From assembly GCA_014238905.1 (NCBI GenBank), contig JABAAE010000013.1, positions 1-64,000 of the forward strand: 64,000 bases of DNA, written 5' to 3'. Each line of letters starts with the position of its first letter. Position 1 is the stretch's first letter. Source of the DNA: Planctomycetota bacterium. GTDB lineage: Bacteria; Planctomycetota; Planctomycetia; Pirellulales; Pirellulaceae. The translations under genes and the position numbers were made by a program. This document shows positions 23,582-27,087 of this stretch, in pieces. The notes below the pieces were generated by a model. The model was not told where the DNA came from and searched no databases. It was given only the letters and a program-made list of their open reading frames with translations.

Positions 23582-23629
23582 TTCTCAACTTCTCAACTTC
23601 TCAACCTCTCAACCTCTCAACCTCTCAAC
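23582..23629 (+). repeat. Six tandem copies of an 8-bp unit
   Basis: TTCTCAAC three times followed by CTCTCAAC three times, perfectly in register, in the non-coding stretch 120 bases before rpe. The clean switch from one variant to the other suggests slippage in both halves. Confidence 0.95.
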
Positions 23630-23749
23630 CTCTGGAACTCTTCTATTTGGATGGACAACGGGCCTTCATCTCCGTTTCACTAATTAAGCAGACTTCTCTC
23701 CAAGGCAATCCTGATTCAACCGGTTAACTCGGACCATGAATTCAGTGCT

Positions 23750-24451
23750 ATGAATCATATCGAAAAATCTATTGACAGCTTGCGCTCCCATCGGCCATTG
23801 ATACTGCCATCAATGCTCATGTGTGACTTCTCGGATATTCGAGAGCAATGCCGTCTTTTGCAGGATGGCGGTGCCGAGGCACTACATCTTGATGTCATGG
23901 ACGGACGGTTCGTGCCAAACCTGTCGTATGGCCTTCCTATTGTCGCTGCGTTTCGAGAGAGTACCGACATGTTGCTGGACGTTCATTTGATGATGGACCA
24001 TCCGGAAAACTATATTTCCCAGTTTGCCGATGCTGGAGCTGACATCTTGACGATTCATCAGGAATCGACTGAGAATGCAGGTGCCTGTATCGAAGAGATT
24101 CACCGGTGCGGAGTGTTGGCTGGAATTGCCGTGAACCCCGATACCGACCTCGATTTAATTCTTGACGTCGCCTCAAGTTGTGATCTTGTTTTGATCATGA
24201 GCGTGCATGCCGGTTTTGGTGGACAGACATTTATTGACAAATCAATTTCCCGCATCGAAACCATGCGCGACCACAGCGAAAACTACCTGCTGGAAGTCGA
24301 TGGTGGGATTAACGCCAGTACCATCGGAAATTGCGCGAATGCAGGCGTTGACCTGTTTGTTGTAGGATCAGCACTTTTTAATCAGAAGGATTATGGATCA
24401 ACACTCTCGCATCTAGCGGGTTTGGCTGAGCCACACAAAGATAATGCTTAA
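23750..24451 (+). CDS. rpe: Ribulose-phosphate 3-epimerase
   Basis: A 233-residue (beta/alpha)8 enzyme that interconverts D-ribulose 5-phosphate and D-xylulose 5-phosphate in the pentose phosphate pathway. Seen: PSMLMCDFSD near the N-terminus (relatives have Ser-Ala-Asp at the start strand), HLDVMDGRFVPNLSYG with the metal His and catalytic Asp, DVHLMMDHPE, MSVHAGFGGQTF, and EVDGGINAST with the second catalytic Asp. Length is typical. The ATG has no clear Shine-Dalgarno site. Its 3' end overlaps the next gene by eight bases (ATGCTTAA), so the two are translationally coupled. Confidence 0.95.
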   Translation: MNHIEKSIDSLRSHRPLILPSMLMCDFSDIREQCRLLQDGGAEALHLDVMDGRFVPNLSYGLPIVAAFRESTDMLLDVHLMMDHPENYISQFADAGADILTIHQESTENAGACIEEIHRCGVLAGIAVNPDTDLDLILDVASSCDLVLIMSVHAGFGGQTFIDKSISRIETMRDHSENYLLEVDGGINASTIGNCANAGVDLFVVGSALFNQKDYGSTLSHLAGLAEPHKDNA

Positions 24452-25025
24452 GATTTTTTTAGTACGTTCCGGCTCGACCGAGTTTGACGAGCAGGGTCGA
24501 ATCAAGGGTAGCTTGGATATACCGCTCAGCGAAGCTGGGATAGAGCAGGTGAGCCGGGCTGCGGAAGAATTAAGCCAGTTCGATATTTCGCGGATCTATT
24601 CGTCGCCTTGTCGTTCGGCGATTCAGACCGCTGAGAGGCTCTCCAGAAAGGGCCAAATCAAGATCAAGACGATAGAAAAATTTGTCAATCTGGACCATGG
24701 TTTATGGCACGGAAAATTGATCGAGGAATTGAAGGCCACGCAACCCAAAAAATATCGCCAATTTGCGGACAATCCCGCGGCAATTTGCCCGCCAGGAGGT
24801 GAGACTCTGCAGTCGGCTCAAGAGCGAGTCGCTTCTGCCTTGAATAAATTGCTCAAAAAACACAAGGACGATCAGGTGATATTGGTGTTGCCCGATCCGT
24901 TGGCCACCATTATTCATGCCATGCTGGCAAGCGAAGACGTTGGTGATTTGTGGAAATCAGAGTGCCAATGTTGCCGATGGGAAGTGATCGATGTGAGCAG
25001 CAGTAAATTCGAGATCGCCAGTTAA
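24444..25025 (+). CDS. Histidine-phosphatase-fold protein lacking catalytic residues
   Basis: A 193-residue member of the histidine phosphatase (phosphoglycerate mutase-like) superfamily by fold: LVRSGSTEFDEQGRIKG, DIPLSEAGIEQ, IYSSPCRSAIQTAE. The residues that do the chemistry are changed. The RHG nucleophile motif is RSG (Ser-9), the acidic residue region reads NLDHGLWHG, and the second histidine motif (usually SHG) reads LPDP (149-152). Arg-8 and Arg-57, which bind phosphate, are kept. It probably cannot form a phosphohistidine and may be a phosphosugar-binding or regulatory protein. It overlaps rpe by eight bases, which suggests a link to pentose phosphate or related sugar phosphates. Confidence 0.85.
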   Translation: MLKIFLVRSGSTEFDEQGRIKGSLDIPLSEAGIEQVSRAAEELSQFDISRIYSSPCRSAIQTAERLSRKGQIKIKTIEKFVNLDHGLWHGKLIEELKATQPKKYRQFADNPAAICPPGGETLQSAQERVASALNKLLKKHKDDQVILVLPDPLATIIHAMLASEDVGDLWKSECQCCRWEVIDVSSSKFEIAS

Positions 25026-25204
25026 AGTTCCTCCAAACCGGATGACGATCCATCGCTGATCGCAATTTTTACAGGAAAGTCTTATTCGCCTCGAAAAAAA
25101 AACCAGCCGAAGTTAAACTAGGGTGACTTGCCCGATCATCGAAACCACCGCTTTTCAACGTGCACCAAACATTGACTTGTGGTACGCGGAATCATTACCA
25201 AGCT

Positions 25205-26056
25205 ATGTCAGAAATCGTTCCAACAAAAACCAAGCCCGAAACGAAATCAAAGAGCCCTAAGCGGGGGATTCCCGAGGGGCTTTGGTTACGGTGTCATGGA
25301 TGTAACGAAGCCATCTTCCGAAAGGAGATGCAGCGGCGTTTGAATACATGTCCGGAATGTAACCACCATTTTTACGTGTCTGCGAAAGATCGCGTGGAAC
25401 AGGTACTCGATGTTGGAACGTTTGAAGAGTGGGATGCCAACCTGCTCCCAGGTGATCCTCTTGAGTTCAAGGACAAAAAGAAGTACTCCGAACGCCTGGT
25501 CGCTGAACAAAATCGGACCGGATTACGCGAGGCGGCACTCACAGGTATAGGAATGGTACGAGCTCGTAGAGTTGCCTTTGGTGTCACCGATTCTGCTTTT
25601 ATTATGGGAAGCATGGGTTCGGTGGTTGGCGAAAAGTTGACCCGCTTGATTGAACGGGCTGCCGATCAACAATTGCCATTGATCATCGTCAGTGGTAGCG
25701 GAGGCGGTGCTAGAATGCATGAAGGAATCCTCTCGTTGATGCAAATGGCAAAAGTCTCTGCCGGGCTTGCCAGATATGATAAGTCCGGTGGTTTATTCAT
25801 TTCAGTTTTAACCAACCCAACCATGGGAGGCGTCGCCGCGAGCTTTGCTTCTTTGGGGGATTTGGTCTTTGCCGAACCGAGGGCGTTGATTGGTTTTGCA
25901 GGTCCCCGGACCATCAAGGCGACCATCGGCGTTGAACTGCCAGAGGGCTTCCAGACGAGCGAATTTCTACTGGAGCATGGTTATATCGATCGGATTGTCG
26001 CACGTGACAAGCTGAAATCGGAGATCGCCAGAGCAATTGACTATTGCGGTAAATGA
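25205..26056 (+). CDS. accD: Acetyl-CoA carboxylase carboxyltransferase subunit beta
   Basis: 283 residues from the ATG at 25205. AccD, with AccA, transfers the carboxyl group from carboxybiotin to acetyl-CoA, giving malonyl-CoA for fatty acid synthesis. The N-terminal zinc ribbon is complete: Cys-30, Cys-33, Cys-49 and Cys-52. Crotonase-like blocks follow: [49 protein letters not shown] and [16 protein letters not shown]. An in-frame GTG at 25160 would add 15 residues without a motif and is not preferred. It follows the phosphatase-like gene by 180 bases. AccA is not in the window. Confidence 0.96.
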
Positions 26057-26118
26057 CGGACTTTTCATACTGAAGCTGTTGTACTTTCCTGTTCCAGCCA
26101 TTGGCCAGCAGATCTCCT

Positions 26119-27087
26119 ATGTCCCTATTCGAAAAAATCAAAGGCTTTTTTCAAAAAGACAGTTCGGACAATCCGGAGAAGTCAGGCTCAGATTCTTCGC
26201 AGCCAACGATAGCGGATCCGTCCAGACTATCTGTTAAGCAGAGGCGTGGGCAAAAGCTTGATGTCGCAACCCGATTTGAGTTGGACAAACATGCTTTTAA
26301 CGGCACGATGTCCCAATTTCGCGTGGCCAAAGATTTTAAATCGGGGAAAACGGTCGGTCTGAAGTTTATCGATCGTGAGAAGGCCAAGCAGTTTGAGGAT
26401 CGATTTGTTGGTCTTCAGAAACCTGCCGAAGGCGAGATCGCCATGCAGCTTATCGATCCCTGCATCGTCGAAACCTACGAGGTCGGCACAACAACCAATA
26501 ACCAGCCTTATATCTTGATGGAATACATCAACGGACCAGGGTTGGATTCACTGATCAATGAACGTTCAAACCGTTTGGACGGTAAGAGGATTCCTTTGAT
26601 CCGTCAAATGGCGAATGCGGTAGCAGCGGTTCACAAAGCTGGCTTTATTCACCGGGATATTTGTCCTCGTAATTTTATTTGTGACGAAAGCCTTGATTGG
26701 CTGAAAATGATTGATTTCGGTCTGACTGTACCTGATAAGCCGGAATTCAAACGACCAGGAAATCGAACGGGTACGCCGTTATACATGGCTCCGGAAATCG
26801 TCAGGCGGCGAACAACGAATCTTCAGGTTGATATATTTTCGTTTGGAGTGACCTGCTTTCGGCTGTTGGTGTTTGACCATCCCTGGTCCAGTTCGGATAC
26901 CACTGGAAAAGCAGCGTTGGCCCATGATACTCGACCGCCCACTGAATTGTTGACGGTGAATCCAAATCTCAACGAGGCGTTGTCCAAAGCGGTGATGAGT
27001 TGTTTGGCAGCAGACCCGAATAGCCGACCGGAATCAATGGAGCATTTCCTGAGGATGATTCGAAAAGTTGAAAACGAAGAACAATAA
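26119..27087 (+). CDS. Hanks-type serine/threonine protein kinase
   Basis: 322 residues from ATG 26119; an upstream in-frame TTG at 26101 is less likely. Residues 1-45 are a polar leader; the kinase domain covers about 52-320. The ATP Lys-82 (VGLKFID), catalytic HRD (178-180), Asn-185, DFG (199-201) and APE (224-226) are present, so it should be active. Two deviations: the glycine-rich loop reads FNGTMSQF, with one glycine, and the catalytic-loop Lys of HRDxKPxN is Cys-182 (HRDICPRNF). There is no transmembrane segment or PASTA/TPR module, so it is cytosolic. The next gene starts 20 bases before its stop, so the kinase and the glycosyltransferase are cotranscribed. Confidence 0.9.
   Translation: MSLFEKIKGFFQKDSSDNPEKSGSDSSQPTIADPSRLSVKQRRGQKLDVATRFELDKHAFNGTMSQFRVAKDFKSGKTVGLKFIDREKAKQFEDRFVGLQKPAEGEIAMQLIDPCIVETYEVGTTTNNQPYILMEYINGPGLDSLINERSNRLDGKRIPLIRQMANAVAAVHKAGFIHRDICPRNFICDESLDWLKMIDFGLTVPDKPEFKRPGNRTGTPLYMAPEIVRRRTTNLQVDIFSFGVTCFRLLVFDHPWSSSDTTGKAALAHDTRPPTELLTVNPNLNEALSKAVMSCLAADPNSRPESMEHFLRMIRKVENEEQ

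What the first reader, a model, noticed from the sequence alone, without database searches (positions are those of the whole stretch)
24444..25025. Histidine phosphatase homologue that has lost its catalytic histidines, coupled to rpe
RHG is replaced by RSG, the second histidine motif by LPDP, and the acidic residue region is altered, while phosphate-binding arginines remain. It overlaps rpe by eight bases, so it is made with ribulose-phosphate epimerase. A pseudophosphatase that binds a sugar phosphate and regulates carbon flow is plausible.
Basis: partly seen in the sequence, partly recalled or inferred. Interest (0 to 1): 0.58.

Follow-up and report, generated by a model that had tools for sequence, protein, structure and literature searches.

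The report
Ancient planctomycete pseudophosphatase beside rpe/accD
A protein shaped like a phosphatase has lost its catalytic machinery throughout a large group of bacteria, yet is strictly conserved and sits among central carbon metabolism genes, so it probably does a non-enzymatic job that remains to be found.

Summary
ORF 24444-25025 (193 aa) is a branch-1 histidine phosphatase fold (PF00300, 134 bits; AlphaFold pLDDT 93, best PDB match phosphoserine phosphatase PspA, TM 0.88). This is no strain decay. Of 126 class-level orthologues, none has the nucleophilic or second histidine, and 126 of 126 have Asn in place of the acid. dN/dS is 0 to 0.14 in 14 pairs. A related dead clade occurs in other classes of the phylum (13 sequences; one branch, 100/99). 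The gene sits next to rpe and/or accD in 136 of 139 loci; the other three lie between pgk and an aldolase. Four same-family genomes lack it cleanly but keep rpe-accD. Best reading: a non-catalytic HP-fold protein whose old active site became a conserved binding site, tied to central carbon metabolism. Partner and ligand are unknown; Rpe is not a uniquely favoured partner.

The parts
23750..24451 (+). rpe, ribulose-phosphate 3-epimerase, apparently intact
   Evidence: TIGR01163 231.9 bits over cut-off 212.6; PF00834 1.5e-61; metal/catalytic motifs HLDVMDG, DVHLMM and DGGI read directly from the sequence (motif roles recalled)
24444..25025 (+). pseudo histidine phosphatase (branch 1 fold), the finding
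   Evidence: PF00300 6.4e-39; AF2 model pLDDT 93.4, pTM 0.90; nearest structure PspA 4ij6, TM 0.88, Z 24.7
24444..24451 (+). 8-base overlap of the rpe end and the pseudophosphatase start
   Evidence: ORF coordinates
24465..24473 (+). codons R8-S9-G10 (canonical RHG); the nucleophilic His is Ser here, Pro in most orthologues
   Evidence: sequence; counts
24486..24488 (+). D15 (Asn in active relatives)
   Evidence: D in 117 of 125 class orthologues, N in 10 of 11 active relatives
24615..24617 (+). S58 in place of the second phosphate Arg
24687..24689 (+). N82 in place of the catalytic acid Glu; invariant Asn in the class
   Evidence: 126 of 126
24891..24899 (+). P150-D151-P152 in place of the second His motif; P152 invariant
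   Evidence: H 0 of 126 at position 150; P152 126 of 126
25160..26056 (+). accD, acetyl-CoA carboxylase carboxyltransferase beta subunit, conserved next gene
   Evidence: TIGR00515 360.8 bits over cut-off 317.45
26101..27087 (+). Ser/Thr protein-kinase-like gene, often fourth in the cluster
   Evidence: PF00069 6.3e-36; found in 33 of 80 named loci

Best explanation
An ancient, fixed pseudoenzyme: a histidine-phosphatase fold that lost catalysis, probably once and before the planctomycete classes diverged, and was then remodelled and held under strong selection. Shown: fold, loss of the catalytic residues, purifying selection, gene order. Inferred: it makes no phosphohistidine and does not hydrolyse phosphoesters; its former active-site face is now a conserved binding site for an unidentified metabolite or protein; through that site it acts as a non-catalytic regulatory or scaffolding subunit of central carbon metabolism enzymes encoded beside it (Rpe, AccD, in other lineages Pgk and aldolase), for example matching pentose-phosphate or glycolytic flux to malonyl-CoA synthesis. 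Rough likelihoods: catalytically dead as a phosphatase 0.95; former active site is a selected binding site 0.7; regulator or scaffold of carbon enzymes 0.4.
For: Catalytic residues: at the six pocket positions defined for the Aquifex HFP (PMC12051542, section 9), of 126 class orthologues H9 is 0 of 125 readable, R58 is 1 of 126, E82 is 0 of 126 and H149 is 0 of 126, while all 11 active relatives aligned have H9, R58 and H149. Selection: HP dN/dS 0 to 0.138 in 14 pairs. Remodelling: positions 9, 15, 82, 87, 152 and 154 (among 12 such positions) are at least 80% one residue in the class and at most 20% that residue in active relatives; by the model's secondary structure 9 and 150-152 directly follow strands E2-8 and E144-149. 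One origin: 62 dead and 10 active rows are split by one branch, 100/99. Context: rpe and/or accD adjacent in 136 of 139 loci; the other three are pgk-HP-DeoC/LacD-type aldolase; single loci show GAPDH-pgk-HP-accD (L155), KDPG aldolase-HP-accD (L263) and glucose-6-phosphate dehydrogenase upstream on the opposite strand (L196). Control: other window neighbours recur in 0 or 1 of 80 named loci, rpe in 79 of 80. The genome has its own full-length cofactor-independent PGM.
Against: No ligand, interaction, expression or phenotype data. The rpe-accD neighbourhood exists without the HP gene (L265, L266, L268, L269, L274), so the HP could ride in a cluster whose linkage has another cause; the absence also shows it is dispensable. 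Twelve of 98 near genomes lack a strong orthologue match. Outside the class, dead relatives keep Glu at position 82 in 11 of 13, so the Asn82 pocket is not shared by all. R8 is kept in 110 of 125 class rows, which could still mean anion binding.
Confidence: 0.5

Rival explanations
1. Neofunctionalised enzyme: the pocket catalyses a different reaction with new residues (R8, D15, N82, E/D151) rather than being non-catalytic.
For: Pocket residues are replaced by specific, conserved polar or proline residues, N82 in 126 of 126; strong purifying selection; neighbours are enzymes of carbon metabolism.
Against: No conserved nucleophile or general acid/base set replaces the His pair; 9 and 150 are mostly Pro or small; dead relatives outside the class differ at these positions (A, S, T, C, D at 9).
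Confidence: 0.17
2. Positional passenger: the gene has an unrelated cytosolic function and is merely carried in the rpe-accD cluster for expression reasons.
For: rpe-accD linkage survives without the gene in L265, L266, L268, L269 and L274; scpB also recurs upstream in about 25 of 80 loci, so unrelated housekeeping genes gather here.
Against: When rpe and accD are apart the gene still stays with one of them, and in one family it lies between pgk and an aldolase; other neighbours are not conserved.
Confidence: 0.16
3. Inactive subunit of a heteromeric phosphatase with an active HP paralogue, as recalled for the PspA/PspB enzyme of Hydrogenobacter.
For: PspA is the closest sequence and structure relative. 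No SerB was found in the genome by TIGR00338, although all 14 control genomes ring. A full-length PF00300 paralogue with an RHA motif exists elsewhere in the genome (L092).
Against: The paralogue L092 is not in the cluster; the only other PF00300 hits are two partial ones near 30 bits. An HP paralogue lay near the cluster in one locus only (L075). The Chiba 2012 paper is not held, so PspB's residues could not be checked.
Confidence: 0.12
4. Decaying gene, or still an ordinary phosphatase with odd residues.
For: Recognisable HP profile and fold; the gene is missing from some genomes.
Against: dN/dS 0 to 0.138 in 14 pairs; order- and class-wide fixation; nucleophile, second His, second Arg and acid lost together in 124 of 126 class orthologues, the two exceptions being one Arg at 58 and one row without an N-terminus.
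Confidence: 0.05

Closest known systems
[quoted passage not shown] NF045917)
   Same: Closest by sequence (3.7e-27) and structure (TM 0.88, Z 24.7, 29% identity); similar length and the DHG-x-W-x-G element
   Different: PspA has RHA and the His and Glu pocket residues; ours lacks H9, R58, E82 and H149 and scores 118.9 against a family cut-off of 350
Aquifex aeolicus histidine family phosphatase (ARAPDP phosphatase, PDB 9mmh)
   Same: Fold (Z 23.6), residue numbering of the pocket, Trp at 169/170
   Different: All six pocket residues present and enzymatically active (PMC12051542, abstract, outline and section 9 read); ours keeps only R8
PspB, partner subunit in the iPSP2 heterodimer (recalled, paper not held)
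   Same: Possibly an inactive HP-fold subunit
   Different: Not testable here; no active PspA-like partner is encoded in the cluster
Pseudophosphatases of other folds (MK-STYX, STYX, PTPRU; seen only in a search listing)
   Same: Lost catalytic residues, retained fold, regulatory role
   Different: Cys-based tyrosine/dual-specificity fold in eukaryotic signalling (recalled); unrelated to the HP fold

Membership tests
Histidine phosphatase superfamily branch 1 (PF00300) | Profile and fold | tested here: met
   134.1 bits against cut-off 21.7; AF2 model and PDB matches
Histidine phosphatase superfamily branch 1 (PF00300) | Nucleophilic His of RHG | tested here: not met
   Ser in ours; 0 of 125 readable class orthologues have His
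Histidine phosphatase superfamily branch 1 (PF00300) | Second His (H149) | tested here: not met
   Pro in ours; 0 of 126
Histidine phosphatase superfamily branch 1 (PF00300) | Two phosphate-binding Arg (R8, R58) | tested here: not met
   R8 present (110 of 125), R58 absent (1 of 126)
Histidine phosphatase superfamily branch 1 (PF00300) | Acidic proton donor (E82) | tested here: not met
   Asn 126 of 126 in the class; Glu kept in 11 of 13 dead relatives outside it
Phosphoserine phosphatase PspA (NF045917) | Curated score cut-off | tested here: not met
   118.9 against 350 bits
Alpha-ribazole phosphatase CobC (TIGR03162) | Curated score cut-off | tested here: not met
   101.6 against 162.9 bits
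Pseudoenzyme (conserved dead homologue) | Catalytic residues lost but gene under purifying selection | tested here: met
Pseudoenzyme (conserved dead homologue) | Absence of catalytic activity | not testable with these tools
   Needs a biochemical assay
Inactive subunit of a heteromeric HP (PspB-like) | Active HP partner that binds it | tested here: inconclusive
   Own genome has one other full-length PF00300 protein, unlinked; binding not testable

The most novel reading that the evidence does not exclude
A phylum-wide planctomycete regulator: a phosphatase-derived pseudoenzyme that reads a metabolite or partner through its former active site and controls the split between pentose-phosphate/glycolytic carbon and malonyl-CoA synthesis, by binding Rpe, AccD and, in other lineages, Pgk or aldolase.
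Probability: 0.25. Interest if true: 0.72.

Novelty: new variant of a known kind. Interest (0 to 1): 0.52.

Why it matters
Bacterial pseudophosphatases of the histidine-phosphatase fold seem little described: no report of one turned up in the listings (listings only were seen). [quoted passage not shown] Genomes that lack it beside an intact rpe-accD pair offer natural deletions. It also warns that annotating this family as histidine phosphatase or phosphoglycerate mutase would mislead.

Tried and rejected
Strain-level decay: rejected. Ordinary phosphatase/mutase: rejected on residues; the genome has its own cofactor-independent PGM (TIGR01307, 620.7 bits). Gene fusion of rpe and HP: long open frames in some loci overlap rpe in another frame and are not fusions. 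Exclusive Rpe partner: not supported; rpe-only 19 against accD-only 18 loci, four of these 37 with the flank cut short on the missing side (L035, L077, L144, L149). Promoter/terminator scan at chance level. Literature: searches gave no report of this family; some were empty and 70 was swamped by an unrelated abbreviation. Limits: no interaction or coevolution test was run; the model came without coordinates, so conserved residues were placed by secondary structure and by the published pocket numbering only.

Rows dropped before counts: fragment L087 (second contig of G094); L077 lacks its N-terminus and counts as a gap at positions 8 to 15; 28 duplicate rows; dN/dS for the own pair L001/L165 is saturated at synonymous sites and gives no ratio; the rpe comparison L220/L216 aligned over only 20 codons and is ignored. 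The 40 class loci were taken from the stronger matches and the 20 outside-class loci from the stronger matches, so weaker matches were not examined; the six near genomes with only weak matches were not read either. The 72-row tree used every third order row and every second class row. The search for related loci kept only 80 of 263 relatives.

Full report
OBSERVATION. The ORF at 24444-25025 on the + strand is real, 193 aa, and overlaps rpe by eight bases. It is a clear member of the histidine phosphatase fold: PF00300 134.1 bits, best solved relative PspA of Hydrogenobacter (3.7e-27). An AlphaFold2 model built on 67 sequences has mean pLDDT 93.4 and pTM 0.90; the best PDB matches are 4ij6/4ij5 (TM 0.88-0.89; Z 24.7 and 24.4) and the Aquifex histidine family phosphatase 9mmh (Z 23.6). 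No curated enzyme model of NCBIfam reaches its cut-off.

POCKET. The Aquifex paper (PMC12051542; abstract, outline and section 9 read) names the phosphate pocket R8, H9, N15, R58, E82, H149, and the numbering carries over almost unchanged. Ours reads R8, S9, D15, S58, N82, P150. The Arg in our SPCRSA lies one place before the canonical Arg column.

FIXED, NOT DECAYED. In a search of 98 related genomes, 92 had any match and 86 a strong one (E at most 1e-33). Together with 40 loci from other families of the class, 126 orthologues were compared. H9: 0 of 125 readable (P 112). R58: 1 of 126. E82: 0 of 126, all Asn. H149: 0 of 126. D15: 117 of 125. R8: 110 of 125. P152: 126 of 126. Eleven active relatives in the same alignment all have R8, H9, R58 and H149, with E or D at 82. 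dN/dS (Nei-Gojobori) for the gene is 0 to 0.138 in 14 close pairs, lower than for rpe in 11 of the 13 pairs where both could be had. The pair with the sister genome is saturated at synonymous sites (pS 0.89, pN 0.21). The changed positions are mostly not drifting: among 193 positions, 82, 15, 9 and 8 rank 2nd (tied), 22nd, 25th and 28th in conservation; 58 (100th) and 150 (70th) are looser. This looks like a reused site rather than an abandoned one.

DEPTH. A class-wide search gave matches at E at most 1e-25 in 197 of 297 genomes, and a phylum-wide one at 1e-15 in 180 of 393; those tallies include active paralogues. Of 20 strong matches fetched outside the class, 13 lack H9, R58 and H149, and 7 are active paralogues. 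The 13 keep Glu at position 82 in 11 cases, so loss of the histidines is probably the older event and Glu-to-Asn belongs to the class. In a 72-row maximum-likelihood tree, dead and active sequences are separated by one branch with 100/99 support, consistent with one origin; the root was not tested. Of the 80 named relatives kept from 263, 78 bear planctomycete names and two are titled only 'bacterium'; the nearest is an uncultured Pirellulaceae MAG, L165, 68% identical. The class is therefore taken to be Planctomycetia and the order Pirellulales (for the lineage).

GENE ORDER. In 139 loci (86 + 40 + 13), rpe lies directly upstream and accD downstream in 99, rpe alone in 19, accD alone in 18, neither in 3. 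The 3 come from one family in another class and read pgk - HP - DeoC/LacD-type aldolase. One class locus without rpe reads GAPDH - pgk - HP - accD (L155), one outside the class KDPG aldolase - HP - accD (L263), and one Pirellulales locus without rpe has glucose-6-phosphate dehydrogenase upstream on the other strand (L196). As a control, the other window genes around the cluster recur in 0 or 1 of 80 named loci, against rpe 79, accD 50 and the kinase 33; those loci were found through the HP gene, so the count says nothing about rpe without it. Conversely, G003, G006, G027, G033 (same family) and G133 (same class) keep rpe next to accD with only about 70 to 235 bases between the rpe end and the start of AccD homology, so the HP is cleanly absent there.

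WORKING MODEL. Shown: fold, residue loss, selection, a dead clade, linkage. Follows from established HP chemistry: without the nucleophilic His there is no phosphohistidine intermediate. Inferred: the former active-site face, where several class-specific conserved positions lie (9, 15, 82, 87, 152, 154), is a binding site for a metabolite or protein, and the protein adjusts enzymes made from the same locus. The Asp at 15 and the lost Arg argue against plain phosphate binding. The linkage does not single out Rpe; AccD is an equally good partner, and a partner common to glycolysis, the pentose phosphate pathway and fatty-acid synthesis cannot be excluded.

RIVALS AND CONTEXT. A new catalytic activity, a passenger in a housekeeping cluster, and an inactive subunit of an HP heteromer (PspB-like, recalled) remain open; decay and ordinary phosphatase activity do not. 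The genome has a full-length cofactor-independent PGM, one other full-length HP (RHA motif read; PF00300), a distant second epimerase homologue at 32% identity, and no SerB hit, in an assembly that is 93.7% complete.

VERDICT. A real pseudoenzyme family of the histidine-phosphatase fold in Planctomycetota, unreported within the searches listed, linked to central carbon metabolism genes; new variant of a known kind. The mechanism is open and testable.

Noticed in passing
window 26101-27087: A small Ser/Thr protein-kinase-like gene (VGLKF, HRDICPRN, DFG motifs present) follows accD and recurs in 33 of 80 named loci, also in genomes that lack the pseudophosphatase. A possible kinase acting on AccD was not pursued.
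   Followed up: partly
window 23583-23641: Tandem array of an 8-base unit (TCTCAACC, 6.4 copies, 97% matches) about 110 bases upstream of the rpe start.
   Followed up: no
G000 (whole genome): No SerB (TIGR00338) match, while all 14 control genomes gave one; the phosphoserine phosphatase of this organism is unidentified, though the assembly is 93.7% complete.
   Followed up: partly
L249, L252, L254: In one family of another class the dead HP lies between pgk and a DeoC/LacD-type aldolase gene, a glycolytic setting instead of rpe/accD.
   Followed up: yes
L179:4272-5063, L200:4015-5046, L221:1076-1891, L068:869-1663: scpB (segregation and condensation protein) recurs upstream of the cluster, in about 25 of 80 named loci.
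   Followed up: partly
L024 (G029:C127:41283-41855): The orthologue in this genome has one in-frame TGA inside the matched stretch; sequencing error or local decay not distinguished.
   Followed up: no
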